Below, piece after piece: positions 3,001 through 38,229 of a DNA stretch of 38,229 nt (position 1 is its first letter; the number at the start of each line of letters is the position of its first letter). Below the pieces are notes generated by a model. The model was not told where the DNA came from. It ran no database searches and saw nothing but the letters and a program-made list of their open reading frames with translations. Source of the stretch: a virus. The DNA lies in IMG/VR virus record IMGVR_UViG_3300042515_001514, positions 1 to 38,229 of that record; one strand, given 5' to 3'. The translations under genes were made by a program, and so were the position numbers.

Positions 3001-5098
3001 GAGAAAAGTCTCGATTTAGCAGAATGCCTACATTATTAAGCACTTGCTGCATTGCCTTGCCCCTGAAAGCTCCGTCCTCCATCGCCTTGGAGAACTCAGG
3101 AATGTCCATTTGCGCTGCTTCTGCGAAAAGCGCCAATGCTCCAGGCAGCACGTCGCCCAACTGCCCACGCAGCTCTTCTGCCGTGATCTGCCCCTTGCTC
3201 GCCATCTGAGAAAGGGCGTATGTCACCCTGTCTACCTTGTCGGCACTCAAGCCGAATGTGGCAGCAGCCTTTGACACACCAGTGAACAGGTTTTGGATTT
3301 CTTCCGCGCCAAACCCTGCAGGCGCCATCGAGGCGTACATGCGGGCAAAGCCTTCCCTGATACTTGCCAATGGCACGGCAAAGCGATCCGCCAAATTGTC
3401 TAAGAAGGCAAAGGAACGGTCAGTCTCCGCAGCGGAGCCAGTGATGGCATTGAGCTGGTTGCGGATAGACTGCAGGGCGCTAGAAGCATCCAGCGCCTGA
3501 CGCGGCAAGTCCATGATGAACGCCAAGCCCTTGTAAGCAGCGCCATACAGCAACACTTGTTTCGTAGCTTGCCCGAACTCTCCAGCAAGCTCCTCAATAG
3601 CACCAGCAAGCGGCACTCTTGCTTGACGAAGGTAACGGTCAGCTTCTCCTAGCGACTTGGCGAATCGACCACCAGCGAGGTAGCCAGAGGGAAGTGCGGT
3701 AGAAGGTCTTTCCCCGCCTCCTCCGTAAGGCGCAGGAGTCCGACCAACACCAGGGGGAAGTTGAGGTGGGCCGCCTCCACCAACGCCTTCTGCCATCACT
3801 GACAAGCCACGCGCCGCTGATCTTTGATACGCCTGTGCAATGCGATCTTGCACGGACATACCAGTAGCGGAAGGCAGTAATCCTGCGATCTGCCGACCAC
3901 CCAACGCTGCCTGCATGGAAGTGCCAAGATCACGCACGTTTACGGAGCGCACTGCAGCATTTAACTCGGCTCTTATTGAATCGACAAAAGCATTAGCGGC
4001 TCCACGTAGAGCTTCTTTTAGAGATGGGGAAAGAATGTCGCCAACAAGTCGCTTTTGCTCTGCGAATGACGTGCCGGGTAGTGCTGCAAAGTTTGCGCCA
4101 GGCGGCAGCGCCCTGCCAGTAGAGGATGGGCCAATGGGAGGGCGAGAGCTTGGCGGCACCTGAGCAGGCCAGTTGATCGCAGGAGGGGCAAGCCTCGCTC
4201 TTCGTTGTGCCGCAACCTGCGCCGGGTCCATGCCCAGCATGTGGAAGACGCCCCTGGCAAACGTATCCAACACTCGCTGCACGCCGCTCCTGTCTGGATT
4301 GCGCATCACAGCCTGAGGATCAAGAAACTTCTTGATCATCTCCACTGACGCATCGGCAACAATCTTTTGAATGATGTTGCCCTTGTTTAGTTTGCTAACG
4401 CCAGATACATTCATCTGCTTAGCAATCTGCCTCAGTTGCTCATTCGTGAAGCCACCAGTCTCTAAGCGGGATTGAAGCTGCGAACGTCGAGCGGCTTCCG
4501 TGACGCCGCCGCCAGCCATTCGTGCCGCACCCATTGCGCTAATGGTTTGCATTCCACGCGCTACCTCGGCATCAATTTCTGCTTGCGTCTTGGCGCCGCC
4601 ACGAATTGCTGCTGATTGCAGATTGGCCTTTACGTCAATAGTGGCAGAACCAAGCTTTCTAACTACATCTGCCTTGAACTTGCTCGCGGCACTATCGGAC
4701 AGTGGCTGCAGTCCCACGGGAAGCAGTATCTTGCCCCCTTGAGCCATGATGCCTCTGTAGACATCAGCGCGAATCTTGCGGGCTTCACGCTGACTGACTG
4801 CTGCCCTGCCACTAACAGGAATCTCTAGCTTTGTATCTTGCAGTGCCTCCAGCCTGTCTTTCAGTTTTTCTGCTTTCGCTATGGAAGCGTCAAGCTGAAC
4901 GTCTTTAATTTTCAGCGTGAACGTTTTGCTGTTCAGAAAACGATCAAGAGCCTTGTATTGAGTGACAATCAGGCGCCTGTCAAATTGCGTGCGCAGCGTA
5001 ATTGGTTGCCCACCAAGCTGCGTGCCAATGGTTGAAATTTGCTGCCTGAGAAGAGCCAGGTCAAGACCAACTGATAGCCTTAGCTCAGGAGCGGCCAT
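2..5098 (-). CDS. Tail tape measure protein with lysozyme-like and M15 peptidase-like domains (3' end beyond left edge)
   Basis: I checked this frame codon by codon: it is open from the ATG at 5098 to the left edge, at least 1699 codons, so the C-terminus is missing. Residues about 470-720 resemble the tape-measure N-terminal domain, with the motif KGQITAEELRGQLG near residue 640, followed by hydrophobic stretches and long coiled-coil-like Ala/Glu/Gln-rich segments. Near residues 1215-1305 there is a lysozyme-like segment (FLET with Glu1224, then GAMGYFQ, ending GTWPSLPGG, recalling the lambda-type lysozyme signature). Residues about 1400-1465 resemble an M15 peptidase: SRHLAGTAMD, then GSHGGHVEF, giving predicted zinc ligands His1425, Asp1432 and His1462. 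The protein sets tail length; the two enzyme-like domains probably open the cell wall during DNA entry. Position just downstream of the G/GT chaperone genes is the classical siphovirus order. Tape-measure identity is firm; enzyme activity is inferred. Confidence 0.9.
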   Translation of the reverse strand, partial: MAAPELRLSVGLDLALLRQQISTIGTQLGGQPITLRTQFDRRLIVTQYKALDRFLNSKTFTLKIKDVQLDASIAKAEKLKDRLEALQDTKLEIPVSGRAAVSQREARKIRADVYRGIMAQGGKILLPVGLQPLSDSAASKFKADVVRKLGSATIDVKANLQSAAIRGGAKTQAEIDAEVARGMQTISAMGAARMAGGGVTEAARRSQLQSRLETGGFTNEQLRQIAKQMNVSGVSKLNKGNIIQKIVADASVEMIKKFLDPQAVMRNPDRSGVQRVLDTFARGVFHMLGMDPAQVAAQRRARLAPPAINWPAQVPPSSRPPIGPSSTGRALPPGANFAALPGTSFAEQKRLVGDILSPSLKEALRGAANAFVDSIRAELNAAVRSVNVRDLGTSMQAALGGRQIAGLLPSATGMSVQDRIAQAYQRSAARGLSVMAEGVGGGGPPQLPPGVGRTPAPYGGGGERPSTALPSGYLAGGRFAKSLGEADRYLRQARVPLAGAIEELAGEFGQATKQVLLYGAAYKGLAFIMDLPRQALDASSALQSIRNQLNAITGSAAETDRSFAFLDNLADRFAVPLASIREGFARMYASMAPAGFGAEEIQNLFTGVSKAAATFGLSADKVDRVTYALSQMASKGQITAEELRGQLGDVLPGALALFAEAAQMDIPEFSKAMEDGAFRGKAMQQVLNNVGILLNRDFSQGAAGAAKTLRGALNDMQNSVLRLYEAFEPLVNIVAQQAFPLISEAVASATQAVQAFAAAAQGNAGPAGALSGQALAIYTVFQQITEIGRALGDVIMSLAPTFAELGRFILFALEQIARFINTPVGGFLANFAAKVALVTAALQLMAKAGIVAAVRGLVLLATQTQATIVKLRVLIATSAAAKAALAGIVVAAVWTAFEILANSIDRVNQKLAESAARARKARDELNEMAVAGMTEPITRKLGEAEERVQSFKRSRDILATIAAKGPQQVSEEDFARLQRSGLAAGLARGPGGFVQRAAGGVPLVGASPDITQQQASANLQLAEIAWREALSDAGNAADELKTAVQVANQSKQQALTPIDLQPSGDPDKAARKAEEDRAKLAAEQQRLAEQYARQQGQLITATAEFQNDKDKLRYEQMRELAEQSFELEKSLMDAKFDYEMAGMNEIHAKNKRNEKELLEIQMRSIRRLSEATARVTEAGMKINAAKALRAASQQAAALLPAEGAAAMGGQGNVQNYLRRLAFLETRIRNVPNAEGSGAMGYFQTKGPFHQEALAASGGKNSRSANYSESAAAVEGWIKRHRPRAYEAIVAGRFDDADAILSQGTWPSLPGGSQAQPPEIQRQARQFLTPPAAPVLPSATGAAPPASVATLGVAVPVIHPETGSGYTVPGVKDAQGRPVVFSREAAEAFAAMITASGGQVRGSDIASSQRSARKNAAVGGATGSRHLAGTAMDIHGRSLEWIKRHGAQYGWNIHDYPGSHGGHVEFSGMKRPASGARQSIARAEQGAEFSVELAEMERANVLAIELGKVVNGARVDLEQTRALLAQQVGEIFPVEQLRLDAQLLKERNALLLQGAPEEYIQAREQITRADIAGTLQAETYRQKITELEVQEKTLAEQVKKGGEMQALYEAELKGVQDRIALHTKALESVTTQQAAYNAEVLEASLLALKNADAMKAMEEAAALVNDAVDGVLSSYKGLFVDIMSGGDIKEAAKRMQESLS

Positions 5099-5136
5099 AT
5101 CGCAGCAACATGCCTATTATCACTTAGCTTAACGAA

Positions 5137-5604
5137 CTATTCTGCATTCTCACGCGAGGATGCAGTCTTGATCTCTTCTGCCAACATACCAATCAGTCTT
5201 CCATCCATCCGTCGAGTTTTGAGCAATTGACGCAAAATACGCAGGCTCTCTTCCGTCACGCCCGTATCCTTCTGCATCTTGCGCGTATCAAACGGCAGGA
5301 AGTCAGCAGGGCTCACTCTTGCCTTCTTGCCACCCAGCGCACCAACCACCACTGCGCCAAGTTTGGCAGTAGCAATGTTGTCGATGTTATGGCGATTCAC
5401 GTCATGGCGCTCAATCCACTTCAGCGCCTTCACCACGTCCTTAGTTCTTTGCAGGCCAAAGTTACGCGCTGACCAACGATCATCCCGGTATTCCGATGCG
5501 GAAAGTCGGAAGTAAATGTCGTCCCAGCGCGTAAGATTCTTTAGCGTGCGTCTAGCTTGCTTTTCTAAGCGTTCGACGGGGCTTAAGCCTTCGTCGTCTT
5601 CGCT
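5137..5604 (-). CDS. Tail assembly chaperone T extension, expressed by -1 frameshift
   Basis: This frame has no upstream start of its own that fits: it is open from about 5631, overlapping the end of the G gene, and continues to a TAG at 5137-5139. After a -1 slip on the A7 run the ribosome would read AGC GAA GAC and add about 155 residues (beginning SEDDEGLSPVERLEK) to the first 169 residues of G, giving a fusion of roughly 324 residues. A shorter internal GTG start at 5436 exists but would discard about a third of this conserved-looking frame. The arrangement is that of lambda G/GT. The T part would recruit tail tube subunits to the chaperone-coated tape measure protein. Confidence 0.8.
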   Translation of the reverse strand, partial: SEDDEGLSPVERLEKQARRTLKNLTRWDDIYFRLSASEYRDDRWSARNFGLQRTKDVVKALKWIERHDVNRHNIDNIATAKLGAVVVGALGGKKARVSPADFLPFDTRKMQKDTGVTEESLRILRQLLKTRRMDGRLIGMLAEEIKTASSRENAE

Positions 5605-22174: not shown

Positions 22175-22480
22175 AAAGGCCCCAGGCTTGAGCATCGTTG
22201 AGAGGCTTAGGGGCGCTACAGGAGGCGATCAACCCTCCTGGCCTGCCGAAGCAGGACTTGAGGCCCGATGCCGAAGCAGAGCGGGGGGCGAGGGTGGGTA
22301 GCCCGAAAGTGGCAATTTGAAATTACCGGACAGGCATCCACCCCCATTTCCGACGTTTGCTAGGTTTTCCGGTTGCAACGTTGGCCAACTCCCCGGAAAC
22401 CGCCTTGCTGCTAGAGCAAGGGCTTGCGACAGTACCGGCAGGCAAGCCCGTCGCATCTGTCGCTTGAAACTATAGCACAA
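22175..22480 (-). ncRNA. Structured non-coding region between tRNA-like elements
   Basis: About 300 G/C-rich bases without a convincing gene. On the minus strand it contains CCTGC-TTCG-GCAGG, a perfect 5-bp stem with a UUCG tetraloop (22232-22245); the same 14 bases recur at 22586-22599, and a related CTGC-TTCG-GCA lies at about 22270. There is also CAGGAGG-GTTGATCG-CCTCCTG (22219-22240 region), and a long stem made of CCGGAAAACC with GGTTTCCGG around 22362-22401. The UUCG loops fold best as minus-strand RNA. Probably transcribed with the flanking tRNA-like elements; function unknown. Confidence 0.4.
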
Positions 22481-29535: not shown

Positions 29536-30168
29536 GTGCACCTTGAAACCTCAAAAACGAAGCAGTGTTCCAAGTGCAAGGAAGTGAAGCTGTTGAATGA
29601 CTTTCCCCGGGACAGGAAGCAAAGAGATGGACTTCGGGCTTCATGCAAGGATTGCAATAACCTACGGCAAAAAGGATATCATCAAAATAATCGAGATAAA
29701 GAGTTACAGCGGGGAAAAGAGTATCATCAAAATAACAAAAATAAAATATCGCAACGTCGTAAAGAATGGTATCAAAACAATCGAGATAAAGCGTTACAGC
29801 GGAAAAAAGAGTATCATCAAAATAATCGAGATAAAAGAAGAGCAGGGCAGGCTCACAGAAGAGCAACTAAACGCAATGCCACCCCGCCATGGGTAGATCA
29901 AGCGGCCATCAATGCAATCTATGCAGAAGCGCTATGGCTTCAAGACTTCACTGGCGAACCGTGCCACGTTGATCACATCGTGCCCCTAAAAAGCGACTTC
30001 GTTTGCGGCCTGCATGTGCCAGCCAACTTACAAACACTTCCAGGTGTGGAGAACCTTGCCAAAGGCAATCGTTCATGGCCAGGACAACTTCCCTGCCAAA
30101 CTAGACGAGGCATTGACCATCAATGGTGGAAAGAACTTTACGCTCGCACTATTGCCTTGGAAGAATAG
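29536..30168 (+). CDS. HNH endonuclease with N-terminal Cys4 finger and 15-residue tandem repeats
   Basis: A 210-residue protein with three parts. Residues 11-40 have Cys11-x2-Cys14 and Cys37-x2-Cys40, a zinc finger typical of free-standing HNH enzymes. Residues 48-105 hold four imperfect 15-residue repeats of (K)EYHQNNRDKxLQRxK, basic and likely to bind DNA. Residues 115-185 hold the HNH core: PCHVDHIVP (His144/His147) and LHVPANLQTL. It starts with GTG, has a hairpin over its start, and is flanked by 28-bp direct repeats, and is the only plus-strand gene in a 14-kb minus-strand region. A mobile, homing-type nuclease is the likely identity. Confidence 0.8.
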   Translation: MHLETSKTKQCSKCKEVKLLNDFPRDRKQRDGLRASCKDCNNLRQKGYHQNNRDKELQRGKEYHQNNKNKISQRRKEWYQNNRDKALQRKKEYHQNNRDKRRAGQAHRRATKRNATPPWVDQAAINAIYAEALWLQDFTGEPCHVDHIVPLKSDFVCGLHVPANLQTLPGVENLAKGNRSWPGQLPCQTRRGIDHQWWKELYARTIALEE

Positions 30169-31615: not shown

Positions 31616-31697
31616 GGCTGAAAAGGGGTGAGGCTCTCGCCTCGTTGAACCAACAATACAGCCCTTCCTCCCCACCATCGCCTCCTGTTACAAAAGT

Positions 31698-31910
31698 TCA
31701 CAAAACAGGCTTCCACGGTGGAGGCTCCAGCCCATCCACCACGGCAATGCGCCTGCGGTTGACGGCTCCAATGCGCAGAAGTGACCGCGCCTGGCGTTCT
31801 AGCGCTTGCCTGTCCGGTCCTGAGTCAAGCAGCTCCCAACGGGCCTGATCATCAGGCAACGGGCTGCTCAGCCACAGGCTGTGGCCTAACCGCTGTTCAA
31901 CGATGGCCAC
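31698..31910 (-). CDS. Small hypothetical protein
   Basis: A 70-residue Arg/Leu-rich protein (MAIVEQRLGHSLWLSSPLPD, then ERQARSLLRIGAVNRRRIAVVDGLE) whose start overlaps the end of the preceding membrane protein gene by 14 bases. No domain recognised. Confidence 0.45.
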   Translation of the reverse strand: MAIVEQRLGHSLWLSSPLPDDQARWELLDSGPDRQALERQARSLLRIGAVNRRRIAVVDGLEPPPWKPVL

Positions 31911-32097
31911 GGGCCTGCTCCTGGGCGACGGTGACTGGAAGGTGCGTTAAGCGGCAGTATTTTTGCGGATGGAGCTTTATGCAGGATGCATAGTCTGCTG
32001 GCCTATCTTCTGTAGCAGGCGAATAAACGACAAAAGCAATGGCTGCCAGCCAAGGAGCAATGGCAGCAGCAATAGTGAGAAAGCGAAGGGGGTGCAT
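31897..32097 (-). CDS. Small membrane-anchored or secreted protein
   Basis: A 66-residue protein with a hydrophobic N-terminal segment (LRFLTIAAAIAPWLAAIAFVVY) that would be a signal anchor, followed by a short soluble tail with two cysteines (KLHPQKYCRLTH). Could be a small lysis-related or envelope protein, but no motif supports this. Confidence 0.5.
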   Translation of the reverse strand: MHPLRFLTIAAAIAPWLAAIAFVVYSPATEDRPADYASCIKLHPQKYCRLTHLPVTVAQEQARGHR

Positions 32098-32127
32098 GGA
32101 CTTGAGGGCGAAGGTGAGTAAACAAAA

Positions 32128-32721
32128 TCAGACCAAGGATTCGCGCAACGCTTTCACCCAGGCCGTTTGCTCAGCAGCCCGTTTCACTTCCTTTGCATAG
32201 TGCTCTCTGTGGTAAGAAAGATCACGCTCGCAACCTTTGATTTCCTGCTGTAGCCATTCTTCTCCGGACAATCGTTCACAAGGCTTGCTGCAATGCTCTG
32301 TTGAGCAGTCAAAACGGATGCTTTCTGTGATTTGCTCACGCATAAACTTCTTAAGCTCATAGTGATCGTCTGTGGGCGGATTCCATCGCTCCACTTGGTT
32401 AAGCATGTCTTCATAAGAAGCCCGCAATGCAAGCGCCTTTTGCAGACACTCCAATCGGCTTACTTCAGCCTGTTCCCATTCTTGATTGGCTGCATGGGTG
32501 CAGTCTGCTGCAGACATCTTGGAAAGGCGTTCCAGTTCAGTCCTGGTGCGGTCAATGGCCTTAAGGTGATAGTCGCTGGGCTCAAAGGCATCAGGAATTT
32601 GCTCACCACCGCCGGGCTCATCCCTCAAGGTGATGCAGGCGCCAAAAGCGCGAGCGCAATCAAGGGCGAACTGCTGAAAGGTGATGCCCTTTACAATGGG
32701 CGCTGTGTATCCAGAAGGCAT
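32128..32721 (-). CDS. Conserved phage protein (MPSGYTAxI...F-ALxCARAFGA type)
   Basis: A 197-residue protein. Residues 1-30, MPSGYTAPIVKGITFQQFAL followed by DCARAFGACI, are a pattern I recognise from a widely distributed phage family of unknown function. The rest is charged and helical (LKAIDRTRTELERLS; RAAEQTAWVKALRES) with several Cys. It probably acts in the early or host-takeover stage, since relatives sit in non-structural regions; this is weak inference. Confidence 0.6.
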   Translation of the reverse strand: MPSGYTAPIVKGITFQQFALDCARAFGACITLRDEPGGGEQIPDAFEPSDYHLKAIDRTRTELERLSKMSAADCTHAANQEWEQAEVSRLECLQKALALRASYEDMLNQVERWNPPTDDHYELKKFMREQITESIRFDCSTEHCSKPCERLSGEEWLQQEIKGCERDLSYHREHYAKEVKRAAEQTAWVKALRESLV

Positions 32722-32832
32722 GGCGTGATAGAGGGATCAACAGGGCCACAATAGCCTTACGAGCCTGTCCTGTCCAGCTCTGTGACAATGCTTCATAAGC
32801 CTGTGCTCTGCGCTACAGTTGCGCCAAGGCAA

Positions 32833-32858
32833 GAAAAAAGCGCCCTTGCGGAGCGCCT
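32833..32858 (-). terminator. Rho-independent terminator
   Basis: Minus-strand GCGCTCC-GCAA-GGGCGC (one G-T pair) followed by TTTTTT. It lies about 80 bases past the end of the 32940-33137 gene and before the next gene downstream at 32721. Confidence 0.8.
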
Positions 32859-32939
32859 TGAGCTGTTCTCTTCTTCATCTTGCCTGCCCCATTGCCCCTT
32901 GTGAAGCCTTTGTCAGCAAAGGCGGATAAGCACTTGTGC

Positions 32940-33137
32940 CTAGGGCTTGAGCGTTTTGATGAAGAACGGAGCGAGCCTGCCCTTGCGTAAACGGGAAGCA
33001 CTTACGACTTGCTTGCTTTTCGTGGCAGTGTTAACAATTTGCACCTTGCCATCCCCATAATCCTTCGTAATGACATAGGCACCTCGCCAGCCAAAGTTCT
33101 GGTCATTCAGGTCTACGGTGTCGCCAACTGTCAGCAT
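32940..33137 (-). CDS. Small beta-rich protein, unknown
   Basis: A 65-residue protein (MLTVGDTVDLNDQNFGWRGA, then GKVQIVNTATKSKQVVSASRL). The 'G..V.L.D..fGW.G.Y.I....DGKV.I' pattern suggests an SH3-like or KOW-like barrel. It lies between the repeat array and a terminator, on the same strand as its neighbours. Confidence 0.55.
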   Translation of the reverse strand: MLTVGDTVDLNDQNFGWRGAYVITKDYGDGKVQIVNTATKSKQVVSASRLRKGRLAPFFIKTLKP

Positions 33138-33180
33138 CAGTATTCCTTGGTGGAAGGGGCGCCAAGCGCCCCCTTATTAA
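33138..33180. other. Leader before the 5-bp-periodic array
   Basis: Short spacer containing GGGGCGCC-AA-GCGCCCCC (33155-33172 region), a G/C inverted repeat that may act as a hairpin at the edge of the array. No gene is visible here. Confidence 0.35.
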
Positions 33181-33264
33181 CCATGCCACACCAAAGCTGT
33201 CCTGGCCGAACCCCGCCGTGACTTGCCAGACCTTAGCTTTCCATGCCTTGCTACAACCGCTTGA

Positions 33265-33310
33265 GGGCGGCAGAGAGCGCTCGAAGACGTTCAGTGCTGC
33301 CGTCTGCAGC
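33265..33310. repeat. Hairpin module 1 of the array
   Basis: GGCAG...CTGCC outer stem around an inner GAGCG-...-CGTTC stem, then the constant ending GTGCTGCCGTCTGCAGC (33294-33310). The same ending recurs 130 and 263 bases later. Confidence 0.6.
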
Positions 33311-33392
33311 TATCGCCGCGCCGCGCCCCGACGAACCATACCAGACCGAGCCCCGCCAAGCCCCGCCGAGCGGAACCTTGTCTACTCTTCAA

Positions 33393-33440
33393 GAGAGCAG
33401 CAGGGAGCCTCTTGCGAAGCTCCGTGCTGCCGTCTGCAGC
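33393..33440. repeat. Hairpin module 2 of the array
   Basis: AGCAGCA...TGCTGC outer stem and inner GGAGC(C)TC-TTGC-GA(A)GCTCC stem, followed by GTGCTGCCGTCTGCAGC (33424-33440). The inner stem differs in sequence from modules 1 and 3 while keeping the pairing. Confidence 0.6.
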
Positions 33441-33528
33441 CATTGCCCTGCCCTGCCCGACCTCAGCGCACCGCGCCCTGCCACGCCGTAACGCGCCCGA
33501 CCGAAGCCTGCCCAGACTGCTCATGTAA

Positions 33529-33573
33529 AGAGCAGCAGAGAGGGCTTGCGCCCTCAGTGCTGCTGTCTGCAGC
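33529..33573. repeat. Hairpin module 3 of the array
   Basis: AGAGCAGCA...TGCTGCT outer stem, inner GAGGGC-TTGC-GCCCTC stem (6 bp, perfect), then GTGCTGCTGTCTGCAGC (33557-33573). One base differs from the constant ending of modules 1 and 2. Confidence 0.6.
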
Positions 33574-33686
33574 CAACAACCTTGCCAAGCCTAGCCTAGC
33601 CTAGTCCGGCCTCACCCCTCCAAACCACGCCTCACCTCGCCCAGTATCACCACGCTGGGACTTACACCAGAGGATGCCCAGCGCGA

Positions 33687-34319
33687 TCAGGCCACCTCAG
33701 CAAGCATCCGGTTGAGGGTTTCAGTGACAGGCATCACTTCAGCCTCAAAACGACCGTGCTTGGGCCTCCAATCGCCCAGTCCCACCAGCTTACCAGCGTC
33801 AGTGGCAATTTCTTCCACGTCACGCAGGTTCAGCACGTCGGGATCGTATTGAGCGATGGCATTGATGCTCCAGTTACGGAAGATGGGACGAGTGCGCATC
33901 ACCTTGGCCATCCCCACCTTCACGCCGATGGTGTGAGTGAAGTCACCGCTGGCAAACATCTCCGCGAGGGTTTCATCGGTGATGGCGTCAGGCTTGCCTG
34001 CAAACTGAAGGGAGGCGTGTTCGGTAAAGAACAGACCGCACTTTGCCTGAGGGCCACGCTTGGACTTTTTAGCGCCGCCAATCATTGTACTTTCAATGAC
34101 ATAATCAGGGATGACAAGATCATCATTGGTGCGGTAAAGACCAGCCAGCCACTCAAGACGAGCGAGTTCGTCAAAGTCGGCGTCGGTTTTTTTTCGCTTC
34201 GAGCTAACGGCCCTCATCGCCTTCGCATAAGTATTTCGCGGATCGGCTGTTTGACCGTTGTGGCACAACAATGGGCTCACGCCTTTGAAGCGAATTTGAA
34301 CAGTCGGAAGTTGAGACAT
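33687..34319 (-). CDS. Conserved phage protein of unknown function (possible distant RAMP/Cas7-like fold)
   Basis: A 210-residue protein; the start MSQLPTVQIRFKGVSPLLCHN at 34319 is chosen because the longer frame overlaps the HNH gene. It has 'LPDDLVIPDYVIESTMIGGA'-type beta strands and 'KSKRGPQAKCGLFF', and ends with the motif VGLGDWRPKHGRFEAEV, which I know from a family found in many siphoviruses and which resembles the glycine-rich loop of RAMP proteins. Function unknown; location downstream of an HNH gene does not help. Confidence 0.6.
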   Translation of the reverse strand: MSQLPTVQIRFKGVSPLLCHNGQTADPRNTYAKAMRAVSSKRKKTDADFDELARLEWLAGLYRTNDDLVIPDYVIESTMIGGAKKSKRGPQAKCGLFFTEHASLQFAGKPDAITDETLAEMFASGDFTHTIGVKVGMAKVMRTRPIFRNWSINAIAQYDPDVLNLRDVEEIATDAGKLVGLGDWRPKHGRFEAEVMPVTETLNRMLAEVA

Positions 34320-34671
34320 TGGGCTTGTTTGATAACAATGGAACGTGCAAAGATGATGCTTGAATGAGAACTGGCTCAACTTGCTTTTTGGGATCGAGCT
34401 TGAAACGCTGGCGTCGAACTGAATTGGTAATGCCATCGTGACATTCAGAGCAGAGCGTCAGAAGGTCTGACAGTTGCTCGTTGCCAAACGAGGGGTACGT
34501 GTAGTCCGGTGGTCCCGCATTCTTGTGATGCACCTGAAGCGATGGCCAACCAAGTTGCTCAAGTTGCTCGCGGGTAATTCCGCAGCCTTGGCACTGGTGG
34601 TTGTCGTGATTAAGCCGTTGCTCGCGCTTTCTCCTCCACGCTGTAGAGGCGTAGTAGGAGTTGTCAGGCAT
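34204..34671 (-). CDS. HNH endonuclease
   Basis: A 155-residue protein with a classical HNH core: Cys27-x2-Cys30 (CQGC), 'LQVHHKNAG' with His48/His49, then 'LSDLLTLCSECHDGI' giving Cys74/Cys77. The N-terminus 'WRRKREQRLNHDNH' is basic. Free-standing HNH nucleases of this type are common in phages and usually act in homing or DNA packaging. Its C-terminal 40 residues overlap the next gene by 116 bases, unusually long; either the C-terminus or the downstream start may be shorter in reality. Confidence 0.8.
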   Translation of the reverse strand: MPDNSYYASTAWRRKREQRLNHDNHQCQGCGITREQLEQLGWPSLQVHHKNAGPPDYTYPSFGNEQLSDLLTLCSECHDGITNSVRRQRFKLDPKKQVEPVLIQASSLHVPLLSNKPNVSTSDCSNSLQRREPIVVPQRSNSRSAKYLCEGDEGR

Positions 34672-34735
34672 GGGTGGGCACCTCTTGGCGGGCGACTGCC
34701 AAACAATACCACAAGTACATGGTCGACGCGAGCAT

Positions 34736-34759
34736 GAAAAAGAGGCACCGAAGCGCCTC
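34736..34759 (-). terminator. Rho-independent terminator with UUCG loop after the RlpA-like gene
   Basis: Minus-strand GAGGCGC-TTCG-GTGCCTC (7 bp including a G-T pair, UUCG loop) followed by TTTTT. The G-T pair exists only in the minus-strand RNA, supporting the direction. It lies beyond the periodic block, about 140 bases past the RlpA stop. Confidence 0.85.
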
Positions 34760-34772
34760 TCTCCAGGTAGTA

Positions 34773-34835
34773 CCTAGCCACGCCATGCCGAGCCTAGCCC
34801 AGCCACGACCTGCCACACTGCGCCCCGCCTGGCCG
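34773..34835. repeat. Second 5-bp-periodic (CCNNG)n block
   Basis: Consecutive pentamers CCTAG CCACG CCATG CCGAG, then CCTAG CCCAG CCACG and more near-CCNNG units, matching the pattern of the 33181-33644 array. It fills the 3' untranslated region of the RlpA-like gene just before a terminator. It shows that the repeat type is not confined to one site. Confidence 0.65.
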
Positions 34836-34897
34836 AAAGAGGGGCAATCGCCAACCTCTGGCAAAGAATAGCGCAATTTTGGCCTTTGTCTTAAGCC

Positions 34898-35251
34898 TTA
34901 CGCCAGTCTTGTCCAGCACAGCCCAGCAACCCCTTGAGACGGGCTTGCTACGCGGGAGAACGCACCGTAGCTCAGATCAAGCTCTCGCCCACCGTAAAAT
35001 GGGCCTCGGTCCGTAACGGTCACGCGCACGCTTTTGCCATTGGCTGGATTGCGCACCAGAATTTGCGAGCCGAACGGTAGTGTGCGATGGGCAGTGGTCA
35101 TTGCGGAAGGGTTCATTGGCTGGCCGTTTGCCATTGTACGCCAGGCAAAGCCATCGCCACGGCCATAGAAACTGGCATCACCACAACGGGCAGCGTGGGC
35201 GGGAGCTGCAGCAAAAGCAGTAATGGTCAGAAAAGAAAGGAAAAAACGCAT
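34898..35251 (-). CDS. RlpA-like secreted protein (double-psi beta barrel)
   Basis: A 117-residue protein with an N-terminal signal peptide (MRFFLSFLTITAFAAAPAHA, predicted cut after residue 20). The mature part has the RlpA pattern: 'DASFYGRGDGFAWRTMANG', 'MTTAHRTLPFGSQILVRNP', and 'VRVTVTDRGPFYGGRELDLS' with the catalytic-type Asp81 and Asp92. RlpA is a lytic transglycosylase that cuts naked glycan strands of peptidoglycan; this short form could help lysis or weaken the wall. No lipobox (Cys after the signal) is seen, so it is probably soluble in the periplasm. Confidence 0.85.
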   Translation of the reverse strand: MRFFLSFLTITAFAAAPAHAARCGDASFYGRGDGFAWRTMANGQPMNPSAMTTAHRTLPFGSQILVRNPANGKSVRVTVTDRGPFYGGRELDLSYGAFSRVASPSQGVAGLCWTRLA

Positions 35252-35267
35252 TTGTTTGTGTAAGTAG

Positions 35268-35459
35268 CTAGAGGGGCCAGTCGCCTGGCAGGCTCAGGAT
35301 TGAGCAATACCCACCGTAGCAGAACGAACAATCCCCTGCGTCGTGGTATGCTTTGTAGGCAATTCGCCCCTGAGGCTTAATCGCCTCCATCGCTGATGCC
35401 GTGAGGGTGGGGGAGTCCGGTTGGTTTTGCACTATCGAAAGAAGTGCAGCCGAGCGCAT
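35268..35459 (-). CDS. Small hypothetical protein
   Basis: A 63-residue frame (MRSAALLSIVQNQPDSPTLT...), with a more likely internal start at 'MEAIKPQGRIAYKAYHD' about 23 residues later. Contains 'CSFCYGGYCSIL', giving three cysteines. It lies 16 bases upstream of the RlpA gene on the same strand and may share its message. No known family. Confidence 0.4.
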   Translation of the reverse strand: MRSAALLSIVQNQPDSPTLTASAMEAIKPQGRIAYKAYHDAGDCSFCYGGYCSILSLPGDWPL

Positions 35460-35525
35460 GGGTCGGTGAGGGCGACCAACCAGCTTCGGGAATGAAGCAG
35501 GGCTTATCGGAGGATTGCAAGAGGG

Positions 35526-35549
35526 AGCCCCGCAAGGGGCTTTCTTTTT
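35526..35549 (+). terminator. Plus-strand rho-independent terminator
   Basis: AGCCCC-GCAA-GGGGCT followed by TTCTTTTT on the plus strand, although no plus-strand gene precedes it for 5 kb. It therefore suggests an unlisted plus-strand transcript reaching this point, or protection of the RlpA operon from antisense transcription. Confidence 0.7.
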
Positions 35550-35665
35550 GTCTATGCTTGTAGCGGGATGTAGGGCGAGCGTTTCTTCGCGCTTGCGAGC
35601 AATCAGCTCTCTGCCCGCTGGACGATTTTTGTCATAAAGAAAGGCCCCTTGCGGGGCTTTTTTGT
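35550..35665 (+). ncRNA. Candidate small structured RNA ending at a terminator
   Basis: Between two terminators the plus strand can fold into a long arm: outer AGCGGG (35562-35567) with CCCGCT (35614-35619), inner GCGAGCG (35575-35581) with CGCTTGC (35590-35596, one G-T pair). It ends at GCCCC-TTGC-GGGGC (35645-35658) followed by six Ts, a strong terminator. It is also the 3' end of the minus-strand operon, because the second hairpin is a plausible bidirectional terminator. No coding frame is visible. A small RNA is possible but unproven. Confidence 0.4.
35643..35664. terminator. Bidirectional terminator at the end of the right-end operon
   Basis: GCCCC-TTGC-GGGGC (5 bp extended by weaker pairs), with TTTTTT on the plus side and CTTTCTTT on the minus side. 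It lies about 70 bases past the stop of the 35733-36002 gene on the minus strand. Confidence 0.7.
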
Positions 35666-35732: not shown

Positions 35733-36002
35733 TCAGCCATGGTCGGCCTCCCGTCGAAACTCGGCCACCACTTCCGCCACCACTTCCGCTGCGGAGTCGC
35801 ACCACTGCCATTGAATAGCTTCCAAAAACGCCGCCACCTCGCGGATTGCGGCGCGGCAGTCGTTGATCACGTATTCATCCTGTGGGCAACTGCTGTCGAG
35901 GGCCATTGCCACCCTCTCCACCAACCCAGCAGGCCGAGCCTCAGCACTGGCGGCGCGGAGTTTGGTCATGGCGGCCTGGGTGGCGTCGGTGAGCTTGATC
36001 AT
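35733..36002 (-). CDS. Small conserved phage protein (related in style to 25925-26257)
   Basis: An 89-residue protein whose ATG overlaps the methyltransferase stop by four bases (ATGA). It starts MIKLTDATQAAMTKLRAASA and contains 'DCRAAIREVAAFLEAIQW' and 'AEVVAEVVAEFRREADHG'. This is the common style of short proteins carried in such phages, of unknown function. Last gene of the right-end operon. Confidence 0.55.
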   Translation of the reverse strand: MIKLTDATQAAMTKLRAASAEARPAGLVERVAMALDSSCPQDEYVINDCRAAIREVAAFLEAIQWQWCDSAAEVVAEVVAEFRREADHG

Positions 36003-37426
36003 CGCTTGGTCTTGCGAGTGGGCTTGCGCCGGAGCTTCTCCGGCAGCACGAAGCCCTTAATCCGGGCCACCCTGGCATTCAGGGCGGCCCAGTCCTCCAG
36101 GTCCTTGAACCTGAAGTGGCCGGTGCCTTTCTTGTAGACCTTGAACTCGAAGAAGCCCCAGTCGTACCAGACGCCGCTTTCCATCCGGTCGAAACCACCT
36201 GGCCGATCAGGCTTCTCGACCTCCTCGTACTTCCGGCCGGTGATGTAGCACAGGGCCTTCACCAGATCCTGCACCCGGCTCTTGTTGCCGCCGTAGCGGA
36301 TGCTCACCGTGCCGCCGCTCCAGTCCGGTTCGGCGATGTAAGGCACGATGAACTTCTGATTGAACAGGTAGGCGTCGTTCGTCTTCCACCCCTCGACCCG
36401 CCAGCGGTTCTCAGCGGTGTGGCGGGTAAGCTCATCGAACGCAGCCTCGACCGCACGATCAATCCGCTGGTCGGTGGTGCCGGCGATGATCTGCAGCATC
36501 CTGAACAGGTTGCGCTCGGTGAATGGCACCTTCGTCTGCTGCTCCACGAACTTGTTGATGTCCCCTGCTAGATGGCTGGTGGCCATCTCGCGCGGCAACA
36601 TCTCGGCGATCACCGACTCCCAGAACGACTTTTGCAGCTCCTTGCGGAACCTGTTGCGGCTGACGGCGCAGCCTTCCATGCTGATCTGGACGCCCAGCTC
36701 GCCTTTGTAGATGCCGCCCACTTGGGCCTGCAGGCGCACGCCGGCCTCCAGTTGCTGGTCATAGATTTTGCAGGCCTCCACGTACCTGTTCACTAGGTCG
36801 CGGCTGCGGCGGTACTTGATCAGGCCCTGGCCCTCGGCTTCGATGTCGTCCGGCCCCAGGAAGAACCCGTCGAACTCATCAGCGCCGCTTACACGTTGCC
36901 CAGGCTTGGTGAGCCGCACCATGCCGATCTCGCAGCGCGTAGTGCGCTCAGCGTCCTCGAACACCGGGCCCAGGTTGTGGCTGCTGCCGTACTGCTCGAT
37001 CAGCGTCTTCAGCTCACGACTGGCCCTGTTGCTCCACCTGTCGGTGGAGACCGTGTTCCAGTTGCAGAGGGCCACTATCTCGCAGCCCGGCGGGGCGATG
37101 GCCCAGGCGTGCAGGATGTGGTACTCATCGGCCGAAAATGGCGGGTTCATCACCACTAGGTCGGCATGGCTGATCTGCTCGGCAGTGACGGCCAGCCAGT
37201 CGTTGCCGATCAGGTGGCAGTCGGCGGGAATGCCGGCGAGGATGGCCCGCAGCTTCGGCTCAGGCTCAACCATGAGCACTTCGGCGGCGCCGCGTTCTAG
37301 GCAGGCCTGCACTAGGTTGCCCGAGCCGGCGGAAGGCTCCACCACCACCCGGCCGCGCAGGTCGAGTGGGTCGAGCATGGTGGCCGCCACGTCGGGCGGC
37401 GTGGGGTAAAAGTCAGCGTTGAACAC
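35999..37426 (-). CDS. Adenine-specific DNA methyltransferase-like protein with DUF4942
   Basis: A 475-residue protein if started at the GTG at 37426, chosen because GGAGG lies six bases upstream and the overlap with the preceding stop is then only 14 bases. It reads MFNADFYPTPPDVAATMLDP, then VVVEPSAGSGNLVQ (residues 27-40, SAM-binding motif I) and VVMNPPF (residues 91-97, the NPPF/Y catalytic motif of N6-adenine methylases). Residues about 200-430 match the DUF4942 pattern ('GTGHFRFKDLEDWAALNARV', 'LFNQKFIVPYI'). It may protect phage DNA from restriction. Confidence 0.8.
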   Translation of the reverse strand: MFNADFYPTPPDVAATMLDPLDLRGRVVVEPSAGSGNLVQACLERGAAEVLMVEPEPKLRAILAGIPADCHLIGNDWLAVTAEQISHADLVVMNPPFSADEYHILHAWAIAPPGCEIVALCNWNTVSTDRWSNRASRELKTLIEQYGSSHNLGPVFEDAERTTRCEIGMVRLTKPGQRVSGADEFDGFFLGPDDIEAEGQGLIKYRRSRDLVNRYVEACKIYDQQLEAGVRLQAQVGGIYKGELGVQISMEGCAVSRNRFRKELQKSFWESVIAEMLPREMATSHLAGDINKFVEQQTKVPFTERNLFRMLQIIAGTTDQRIDRAVEAAFDELTRHTAENRWRVEGWKTNDAYLFNQKFIVPYIAEPDWSGGTVSIRYGGNKSRVQDLVKALCYITGRKYEEVEKPDRPGGFDRMESGVWYDWGFFEFKVYKKGTGHFRFKDLEDWAALNARVARIKGFVLPEKLRRKPTRKTKR

Positions 37427-37616
37427 GGCTGGCCTCCACGCTCTGCGAGCAGCCGAGGCGCTCAGCAATGGCGGCGCGGAGTTCGGTCATGGGGGCCTCC
37501 AGCGCCTCGATGCGGGAGCGGAGTTCAAGGATGCAGTTGAACGCGCCAGACCAAAGACGGGCGCCTTCCTCGCACTTGGCCCACTCCTCAGGCGTGGCGC
37601 GGTGTGGTGTGGTCAT
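37413..37616 (-). CDS. Small conserved phage protein
   Basis: A 67-residue protein starting MTTPHRATPEEWAKCEEGAR at 37616; this start overlaps the pentapeptide gene stop by four bases (ATGA). It contains 'LELRSRIEALEAPMTELRAA', a coiled-coil-like helix. It belongs to a common family of short proteins in phages of aquatic bacteria, function unknown. Its stop overlaps the methyltransferase start region by 14 bases. Confidence 0.6.
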   Translation of the reverse strand: MTTPHRATPEEWAKCEEGARLWSGAFNCILELRSRIEALEAPMTELRAAIAERLGCSQSVEASRVQR

Positions 37617-38229
37617 GCCGCCTCCTGTGCAACAGACTGCAGCCACGCAATCGCATCATTATTGCTGTCATAAAAGTGCGCAGCAGCATTAGCGCCTAAC
37701 AACAGCAATCCAGCCATGTATGGGCCATGAAGTTTCTCCAAGACTTTACCTAATGTTCCAGCCTGGCGAATAGCCCACCCTGCTAGGCAGTGAGTAGTGC
37801 CGCACTCGCTATGCCAGATTCTCATCTGCAGGTTTTGGGGGTGAGCCAATACATGGCTGGCAACCGCACGCAGACGTTGCTGGGCATCTGCAGCAATTGG
37901 CAATCCGTTGGCGTCGCTCAGAATGGCGCCGCGCAGATCGGCGTAGCGCAGATCAACGCCGCGCAGATCGGCGTCGCTCAGAATGGCGCCGCTCAGAATG
38001 GCGCCGCGCAGATCGGCGCCGCGCAGATCGGCGCCGCTCAGAATGGCGTAGCGCAGATCGGCGTCGCTCAGATCGGCGCCGCGCAGATCGGCGCCGCGCA
38101 GATCGGCGCCGCTCAGAATGGCGTAGCGCAGATCGGCGTCGCTCAGATCGGCGCCGCGCAGATCGGCGTCGCGCAGATCGGCGCCGCTCAGAATGGCGTA
38201 GCGCAGATCGGCGTCGCTCAGATCGGCGC
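37613..38229 (-). CDS. Pentapeptide-repeat protein, C-terminal part (5' end beyond right edge)
   Basis: The 15-bp repeat reads in one frame from the right edge into a downstream C-terminal domain, so the gene starts beyond position 38229. On the minus strand the repeats encode ADLR/ADLS/AILS-type pentapeptides (A-x-L-x-x), here about 20 units; this pattern forms a right-handed quadrilateral beta helix that can mimic DNA and, in some proteins, inhibit gyrase. After the repeats comes a roughly 100-residue domain (PIAADAQQRLRAVASHVLAHP...) with 'ECGTTHCLAGWAIRQAG'. The first two bases at the edge are an incomplete codon. Function unknown. Confidence 0.85.
   Translation of the reverse strand, partial: ADLSDADLRYAILSGADLRDADLRGADLSDADLRYAILSGADLRGADLRGADLSDADLRYAILSGADLRGADLRGAILSGAILSDADLRGVDLRYADLRGAILSDANGLPIAADAQQRLRAVASHVLAHPQNLQMRIWHSECGTTHCLAGWAIRQAGTLGKVLEKLHGPYMAGLLLLGANAAAHFYDSNNDAIAWLQSVAQEAA
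37916..38229 (-). repeat. 15-bp tandem repeat with a 75-bp higher-order unit
   Basis: Units of type GATCGGCGCCGCGCA repeat every 15 bp from about 37916 to the window edge. Within it a 75-bp unit (five 15-mers) repeats: 38041-38115 and 38116-38190 differ at a single base (38094 C versus 38169 T), and a third copy begins at 38191. Such recent expansion inside a coding gene is consistent with slippage or recombination, and the contig end within it suggests an assembly break. Confidence 0.9.

What the first reader, a model, noticed from the sequence alone, without database searches (positions are those of the whole stretch)
33181..34835. Degenerate 5-bp-periodic (CCNNG) arrays with three hairpin modules: a possible new repeat system
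About 460 bp at 33181-33644 and 63 bp at 34773-34835 are built of pentamers near CCNNG, kept in register across hairpin modules at 130-133-bp spacing. The modules end in the constant GTGCTGCCGTCTGCAGC and have inner stems that differ by pairing-preserving changes. The array lies in a transcribed minus-strand 3' region and does not look coding, CRISPR-like or simple microsatellite.
Basis: partly seen in the sequence, partly recalled or inferred. Interest (0 to 1): 0.72.

Follow-up and report, generated by a model that had tools for sequence, protein, structure and literature searches.

The report
Gapped RNA guides aimed at phages
The odd five-letter repeats look like a bank of guide RNAs of the recently described VIPR system: they sit beside the gene for a CRISPR-like RNA-binding protein in a phage, and one guide spells out, two letters out of every three, a gene of a close sister phage in which the system was not found.

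Summary
On the minus strand the array is GGY-NN pentamers in five blocks (13 to 16 units): four downstream and one upstream of an HNH-endonuclease gene that overlaps a 210-aa gene. That protein matches the solved SUSP1 Vipr protein (E 3.7e-32), and its AlphaFold model matches chains of type III CRISPR (Csm) complexes. This is therefore a VIPR locus (Viral Interference Programmable Repeat; preprint PMC13142463, April 2026), and the blocks are vrRNA guides. The hairpin modules correspond to structured 3' tails of vrRNAs; 108 of them covary strongly. The published one-base-skip code holds here: 42 of 182 decoded guides have a near-perfect target (18 or more of 20) in fetched relatives at skip 1, against 5, 1 and 6 at skips 0, 2 and 3, and 5 with shuffled order. 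Targets are mostly terminase, portal and head-tail joining genes of sibling phages. Window guide D matches 27/30 in a sister phage without a detected Vipr gene, at the empty cassette site; the window's own allele matches 14/30. The other four window guides found no target. Targets cluster beside vipr, and an HNH gene accompanies vipr in 75 of 79 loci, so RNA-guided homing is an open, untested possibility.

The parts
34770..34834 (-). vrRNA-like guide E (13 GGY-NN units), upstream of the two genes
   Evidence: same position as the upstream vrRNA described for SUSP1 in PMC13142463; upstream blocks in 9 of 79 loci
34738..34766 (-). terminator-like hairpin after guide E (GAGAGGCGC-UUCG-GUGCCUC, then T run)
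   Evidence: terminator-like site, but the region holds no more such sites than shuffles do; z -3.1
34204..34671 (-). HNH endonuclease gene (155 aa), candidate vap; its 3' end overlaps the vipr start
   Evidence: Pfam HNH just below cut-off; 75 of 79 loci; CxxC, VHH, CxxCHDGI conserved in at least 95% of 57 rows
33687..34319 (-). vipr gene (210 aa, start MSQLP; the 249-aa ORF call starts too early)
   Evidence: SUSP1 Vipr PDB 36pp, E 3.7e-32; fold matches to chains of CRISPR Csm complexes
33653..33683 (-). leader hairpin just after the vipr stop (GCGCUGGGCAUCC..GGUGUAAGUCCCAGC); similar sequence at this place in the 22 relatives printed
   Evidence: z -1.7, 12 of 200 shuffles fold as well
33577..33656 (-). 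guide A (16 units by the model; the first three run into the leader hairpin)
33514..33575 (-). hairpin module / vrRNA tail 1
   Evidence: z -3.0
33443..33512 (-). guide B (14 units)
33384..33440 (-). hairpin module / vrRNA tail 2
   Evidence: z -3.6
33313..33382 (-). guide C (14 units)
33255..33310 (-). hairpin module / vrRNA tail 3
   Evidence: z -0.7: no better than shuffles when folded alone
33178..33252 (-). guide D (15 units); matches a sister-phage gene 27/30 with a one-base skip
33154..33174 (-). terminal hairpin after guide D (GGGGGCGC..GCGCCCC)
   Evidence: z -2.55 for 33148-33185; not reported as terminator-like
32940..33137 (-). small gene next to guide D; the window's own, diverged allele of guide D's target (48-52% aa identity; own allele matches guide D 14/30)

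Best explanation
This is a phage-borne VIPR locus. The minus-strand array is transcribed (inferred) into several vrRNAs, each a run of about 12-16 GGY-NN units followed by a folded tail (the hairpin module, or a terminator-like hairpin at the ends). The Vipr protein (33687-34319), a small RAMP, coats the vrRNA (inferred from the published system). The NN dinucleotides pair with double-stranded DNA in the pattern NN-x-NN-x, so a 15-unit guide reads 30 bases of a 45-bp site (rule tested here by sequence statistics). Guides are aimed at genes of closely related, competing phages: terminase, portal, head-tail joining, helicase, and for guide D a small gene beside the cassette site in a sister phage without a detected Vipr gene (shown by matching). 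The phage's own alleles match less well (shown for guide D, a tendency for the others), so it mostly spares itself (inferred). The outcome for the target is either transcriptional repression, as reported for SUSP1, or, because an HNH nuclease gene overlaps vipr throughout this clade, nicking or cutting of the competitor's DNA (inferred, not shown).
For: Vipr: a profile of 30 relatives hits SUSP1 Vipr chain 36pp_D at 3.7e-32 over positions 7-196; the AlphaFold model (pLDDT 83) has 33 PDB matches at E <= 0.001, and all 50 listed are chains of CRISPR effector structures, nearly all type III Csm. Guides: GGY-NN blocks in 122 of 125 sequences examined, including all 80 loci fetched by their vipr homologue, an Aminicenantes-MAG contig (L121) and phages of Escherichia, Gordonia, Pseudomonas and Mycobacterium. 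Code: 18 or more of 20 in 42 of 182 guides at skip 1, against 5, 1 and 6 of 182 at skips 0, 2 and 3, and 5 of 182 with unit order shuffled; in 51 other contigs only 3 of 177 non-window guides reach that at skip 1. Skip base at codon position 3 in 33 of 42, position 1 in 9 (the phase expected if the longest ORF is antisense; not checked gene by gene), position 2 in 0. Guide D: 27/30 in both sister contigs, whose records give no match to Vipr. Tails: 95.4% of cells paired and 167 double-changed cells, against 38 +/- 5 shuffled.
Against: Nothing here measures RNA, protein or DNA binding. Guides A, B, C and E of the window gave only chance-level extensions of their seed matches. 140 of 182 guides found no target at that threshold in the sequence held, and some of the 42 are near-duplicates carried by related phages. 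Foldseek TM-scores are modest (0.25-0.46). The type (I-VII) could not be assigned, because the preprint's supplement was not available. In 10 of 34 cases (one of them a guide whose best target is its own locus) the guide's own locus matches at least 0.9 times as well as the target, so self-sparing is not absolute.
Confidence: 0.96

Rival explanations
1. RNA-guided intronless homing or marker exclusion: Vipr plus vrRNA directs the HNH nuclease to genes flanking the cassette site in VIPR-less or differently armed siblings; repair from the VIPR+ phage copies the cassette and its resistant flanking allele.
For: HNH homologue on the same strand as vipr in 75 of 79 loci with enough upstream sequence, overlapping its start in all 75 clade loci L046-L120, L121 and the window, with zinc and HH/H motif residues conserved in 57 distinct rows. 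In 32 records, 83 of 93 skip-1 hits lie within 2.5 kb of vipr against 24.7 expected by length; by site cluster 11 of 17 (P about 0.001). Guide D hits the gene at the empty cassette site of the sister phage, and the stretch of that gene next to the window's cassette is diverged while the adjoining flank is 92.9% identical.
Against: Hits are not independent: one cluster (portal) supplies 57 of 94, and several records are near-copies of each other or fragments. As a control, skip-3 hits also lean towards vipr (5 of 8 within 2.5 kb; skip 0, 2 of 8; skip 2, 1 of 3). The published mode for SUSP1 is repression, and targeting of other VIPR systems is already described there as defence (PMC13142463). 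Guide-target geometry says nothing of cutting, and no transfer event was seen.
Confidence: 0.2
2. VIPR as pure repressor; the HNH gene is an ordinary free-standing homing endonuclease that happens to sit upstream.
For: Free-standing HNH genes are common in phages (recalled); closest family matches are generic HNH families. The four reference phages without it (L122-L125) still have vipr and arrays.
Against: The overlap with vipr (65-191 nt, measured from the start of the homologous stretch) and its presence in all 75 clade loci examined plus the distant L121 are unusual for a hitchhiker.
Confidence: 0.3
3. Non-guide role: a structural, terminator or protein-sponge RNA with a GG period of five (for example a G-quadruplex tract or a TRAP-like binding platform), or neutral low-complexity DNA.
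For: GG every five bases alone would fit a two-tier quadruplex or a ring-shaped RNA-binding protein (recalled); some blocks end in hairpins.
Against: NN positions spell out sibling-phage genes at a one-base skip far above controls, which neither structure nor neutrality predicts.
Confidence: 0.02
4. A CRISPR array.
For: Repeated structured modules between variable segments, beside a RAMP gene.
Against: No identical direct repeats with contiguous spacers; the variable segments keep GGY every five bases. No cas gene among the window proteins searched (ten and eight proteins).
Confidence: 0.01

Closest known systems
VIPR system of Escherichia phage SUSP1 and the Pseudomonas fulva prophage (type II; PMC13142463, parts 1-3 of 4 of the text read)
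   Same: Homologous Vipr RAMP; vrRNAs of 9-16 YNNGG units with a structured 3' tail; guides upstream and downstream of the genes; one-base-skip code; guides aimed at rival mobile elements.
   Different: Companion gene here is an HNH nuclease overlapping vipr; tails are three-stem modules unlike the spacer of the Felixounavirus relative L122; targets found are capsid, packaging and other genes of sibling phages, often next to their own vipr, rather than satellites or prophage regulators.
Other VIPR types: with nuclease or helicase vap, staggered, or hammerhead-interspersed arrays (PMC13142463)
   Same: Nuclease companion (types III-V are said to carry predicted enzymes such as nucleases or helicases); structured elements between guides.
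   Different: Types III and V are described as enriched in defence islands and as the only types with predicted nucleases; here a phage carries one. No hammerhead was found by Rfam in the window (gathering; relaxed on the array). Exact type not testable: supplement not readable.
CRISPR-Cas class 1 RAMP complexes (Csm3/Cas7)
   Same: Fold of the protein; RNA guides in an array.
   Different: Gapped guide, no repeats with contiguous spacers, no adaptation genes seen; single small protein.
Intronless homing by free-standing phage endonucleases (T4-type, Skunavirus HNH; PMC2988022 and PMC12724721, seen only as search listing and start of abstract)
   Same: HNH gene in a phage; in the homing reading, attack on the corresponding locus of a relative.
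   Different: Here specificity would come from an RNA guide; cutting and transfer are unshown.

Membership tests
VIPR | Vipr protein: small single RAMP homologous to the described family | tested here: met
   SUSP1 Vipr 36pp_D, E 3.7e-32; RAMP-type fold. G-loop and thumb not examined one by one.
VIPR | vrRNA region of 9-16 GGY/NN tandem units beside the gene | tested here: met
   Five blocks of 13-16 units; blocks in 122 of 125 sequences
VIPR | Conserved structured 3' tail after the units | tested here: met
   108 of 110 usable tails aligned; helices S1:S2 and central 95.4% paired, 167 double changes against 38 shuffled; S3:S4 stem of 7 bp or more in 96 of 108 against 5 of 108 shuffled
VIPR | Pseudoknot in the tail (SUSP1 clade) | tested here: inconclusive
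   Two mutually exclusive pairings both covary
VIPR | Target recognition with one skipped base between NN pairs | tested here: met
   Sequence statistics only: 42 against 5, 1, 6 and shuffled 5 of 182; in 32 records 94 hits against 8, 3, 8
VIPR | Skip base at the codon wobble position | tested here: met
   33 of 42 at position 3, 9 at position 1 (phase expected for an antisense ORF, not checked gene by gene), 0 at position 2
VIPR | Accessory vap gene | tested here: inconclusive
   An HNH gene accompanies vipr in 75 of 79 loci; whether it is one of vap1-6 could not be tested
VIPR | Transcription of ~100-nt vrRNAs and binding to Vipr | not testable with these tools
   needs small-RNA sequencing and pull-down
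VIPR types III/V (nuclease-bearing) | Vipr phylogeny and vap type | not testable with these tools
CRISPR-Cas | Identical direct repeats separating contiguous spacers | tested here: not met
Hammerhead-interspersed VIPR array | Hammerhead ribozyme between guides | tested here: not met
   no Rfam hammerhead match in the window (gathering), in 33100-33720 at E up to 5, or in six relatives (gathering)

The most novel reading that the evidence does not exclude
The clade's HNH-VIPR cassettes are RNA-guided homing elements: the gapped guides steer the nuclease to genes flanking the cassette site in sibling phages, and recombination then installs the cassette with its guide-resistant flanking allele. 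This would be homing whose target specificity is rewritten by changing NN letters.
Probability: 0.2. Interest if true: 0.85.

Novelty: new member of a known kind. Interest (0 to 1): 0.6.

Why it matters
It is an independent test of the VIPR gapped code in an uncultivated phage clade, using natural guide-target pairs. It offers ready material: 182 decoded guides, 42 of them with natural sites, and a sister phage without a detected Vipr gene whose empty site is the target. It also shows what these phages aim at, largely packaging and capsid genes of siblings beside the cassette, and makes the role of an attached nuclease directly testable.

Tried and rejected
Rfam search of the window and six relatives: nothing for the array. 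Megablast of window:20000-38229 in annotated phages: no match. Looking for the Vipr gene in bacterial genomes with a 104-residue query: 159 stretches matched a pattern, 1 encodes a relative (L121). A simple regex for the modules was too strict: 47 hits, a few spurious. TRAP-like platform and G-quadruplex were considered from the period and dropped once the skip-1 matches appeared. Window guides A, B, C, E: 8-unit seeds in viral contigs gave 14, 12, 22 and 3 stretches, and a second seed for A gave 7. Extensions were chance-like (at most 7 of 12 further bases, for guide C). Several guide-A hits fall in genes that read like the PHP domain of DNA polymerase III alpha (recalled from the sequence), but units on either side do not match. 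A linear three-hairpin fold against a nested fold for the tail was not settled: the third window module is weak (z -0.72).

Rows dropped: of 225 distinct arrays, 195 passed GG content and length (8 to 24 units) and 182 had at least 10 units; the 182 were drawn from all loci held then, that is the clade and the outlying loci L121-L125. Of 117 spacers, 4 from L122/L125, 1 without a core, 2 duplicates and 2 of odd length (L043:5939-6017, L096:6780-6870) were left out of the 108-row alignment. L001 (a piece of the window) was left out of the target work. The sister record behind L152 was not fetched whole.

Full report
What was checked. The window is a 38,229-base IMG/VR virus record. The five-base period is real: power 10.0 at period 5 over 33181-33660 against 0.68 +/- 0.42 for 300 dinucleotide shuffles, none as high, and no other period from 2 to 10 is raised there. 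Read on the minus strand the unit is GGY-NN. A Viterbi model finds blocks at 34770-34834, 33577-33656, 33443-33512, 33313-33382 and 33178-33252, with no array in five mononucleotide-shuffled windows on one strand; it also flags two stretches of the window that I do not count as guides, 37591-37620 and the pentapeptide-repeat-like frame at 37910-38229. Three hairpin modules separate the last four blocks at 130 and 133 bp spacing.

What lies around it. The blocks flank two overlapping minus-strand genes. The second (33687-34319, PHROG 4652, no Pfam match) has relatives in 85 of 87 pattern-matching stretches of viral contigs, 80 kept. In the 22 relatives printed, the same kind of array follows the gene; the 17-base module core, at up to 2 mismatches, occurs 1 to 7 times in many loci but is absent from others, whose modules belong to other sequence classes. 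Arrays were found in 122 of 125 sequences examined (none in L007, L008, L036, which came from the bare 17-base motif). An upstream block like guide E is present in only 9 of 79 loci. The distant relative L121 and annotated phages of Escherichia, Gordonia, Pseudomonas and Mycobacterium have GGY-NN blocks beside the homologous gene too.

What the protein is. A profile of 30 relatives hits one solved structure clearly, 36pp_D, named SUSP1 Vipr protein, E 3.7e-32. The AlphaFold model of the window protein (pLDDT 83) has 33 PDB matches at E 0.001 or better; all 50 listed matches are chains of CRISPR effector structures, nearly all type III Csm, Csm3 where a subunit is named (TM-scores only 0.25-0.46 by query length). 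A paper search for Vipr led to PMC13142463, of which I read parts 1-3 of 4. It describes VIPR: a RAMP said to be older than CRISPR, vrRNAs of GGY/NN units with a structured tail, and DNA recognition with one skipped base per NN pair. The supplement could not be read.

Testing the code here. I decoded 182 distinct guides with at least 10 units (some are near-duplicates) and looked for the best 10-unit match in 125 fetched sequences (1.07 Mb with separators, arrays masked). Matches of 18 or more of 20 letters: skip 0, 5; skip 1, 42; skip 2, 1; skip 3, 6; skip 1 with unit order shuffled, 5. In 51 other contigs (0.46 Mb) the skip-1 count is 3 of 177 guides once the five window guides are set aside, four of which reach the threshold there because their own seeds had fetched those contigs; the other skips, with all 182 guides, give 1, 0 and 3. 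In the 42 pairs the skip base falls at codon position 3 in 33, at position 1 in 9 (the phase expected where the longest ORF is antisense; not checked gene by gene) and at position 2 in none. Target ORFs form nine clusters, named from one or two representatives each: portal protein (15 guides), terminase large subunit (9 and 2), head-tail joining (5), helicase (2), an unidentified ORF (6) and three singles. Where the guide's own locus has the homologous site (34 of 42) it matches less well on average (0.65 against 0.80), but in 10 of 34, one of them a self-hit, it matches at least 0.9 times as well; targets were chosen as best hits, which inflates the difference.

Window guides. Guide D (33178-33252) matches 27 of 30 letters in two contigs, L152 and L153; the chance of 11 or more of the 14 bases outside the seed is 4e-5. 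The two are sister phages: 92.9% nucleotide identity over window 31627-33013 and, for L153, 85% over 34915-35648, with window 33014-34914 (the VIPR cassette and the start of the small gene) replaced by 249 bp. Neither record gives a Vipr match (63,089 and 15,214 bases, possibly fragments). The target is the small gene at the empty site. The window's own allele, 48-52% identical in protein, matches guide D in only 14 of 30 letters, and the best match anywhere in the window is 19 of 30. Guides A, B, C and E have no convincing target in the collection searched. At the same threshold no decoded guide targets the window (0 of 182).

Where targets lie. In 32 records (823 kb, some of them fragments or near-copies) 94 guide-record hits occur at skip 1, from 36 guides, against 8, 3 and 8 hits at skips 0, 2 and 3. 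Of 93 in records with vipr, 83 lie within 2.5 kb of it (24.7 expected by length); by site cluster 11 of 17, P about 0.001; one cluster gives 57 hits. The control skips 0 and 2 give 2 of 8 and 1 of 3 and, against a clean contrast, skip 3 gives 5 of 8. Only 1 of the 94 is on a record that carries the identical guide.

The hairpin modules. 108 tails form three sequence classes. Pairing of strands 1:2 plus the central hairpin holds in 95.4% of cells with 167 double changes (38 +/- 5 in shuffles, 0/500); the alternative pairing 2:3 plus the central hairpin does equally well (96.5%, 174 against 42). Strands 3:4 pair with 7 bp or more in 96 of 108 (5 of 108 shuffled). Swapping strands between sequences lowers all four pairings. 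So the tail is under selection to pair, and may switch or form a knot; which fold acts is not settled. Two of the three window modules fold better than shuffles (z -3.0, -3.6), the third does not (z -0.7). No hammerhead was found.

The nuclease. An HNH homologue lies on the same strand as vipr in 75 of 79 loci with 700 nt or more upstream; the four without it are the reference phages L122-L125. Where both are seen it overlaps the vipr start by 65-191 nt, measured from the start of the homologous stretch. Its CxxC, VHH and CxxCHDGI residues are conserved in at least 95% of 57 distinct rows. The preprint says that types III and V, the only ones with predicted nucleases, are enriched in defence islands; a phage clade with a nuclease companion is therefore of interest, but type membership is untested.

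Reading. This is a VIPR locus, and the array is its guide bank. The likely action is interference with sibling phages during co-infection. Whether by repression, cutting, or cutting followed by cassette transfer is open; I give homing 0.2. As to what is in print: searches (20 of 116 papers listed; 3 of 4 listed) showed no other paper on this VIPR; most subscription journals are not in the library.

Noticed in passing
L125 (Mycobacterium phage LittleE) 2226-2292, 2345-2420, 3679-3737, 3808-3889: The spacers and ends of its GGY-NN blocks look like tRNA acceptor/T-arm mini-helices (GGTTCGAGTCC or similar between complementary arms), as if tRNA-processing enzymes release each guide; ARAGORN calls no tRNA.
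   Followed up: partly
window 22178-22214 (-): abiF RNA (Rfam RF03085, 40.2 bits, E 4.4e-4) in a phage, between a small gene with sub-threshold IHF matches and a ribonucleotide reductase gene: possible decoy or antitoxin RNA against a host defence. No dedicated search for an Abi protein gene was made.
   Followed up: no
window 33653-33683 (-): A hairpin with GGCATCC..GGTGTAAGTCC directly after the vipr stop recurs, with variation, at this place in the 22 printed relatives; function unknown, no Rfam match.
   Followed up: no
L121 (contig DQHV01000153.1, Aminicenantes MAG) 4432-5569: A distant HNH-vipr pair with long GGY-NN blocks (23 and 30 units) and no three-stem modules seen; one more block on the other strand at 1954-2010.
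   Followed up: partly
window 37910-38229: Pentapeptide-repeat-like reading frame (15-bp period, 21 copies) cut by the window end.
   Followed up: no
window 29670-29835: 45-bp tandem repeat, 3.7 copies.
   Followed up: no
window 35999-37468 (-): Methyltransferase-like protein with a DUF4942 C-terminus and a match to the PADLOC mad2 model (E 5e-13).
   Followed up: no
L063 5155-5900: The vipr reading frame is broken near its 3' end in this record (or mis-sequenced), with arrays still present.
   Followed up: no
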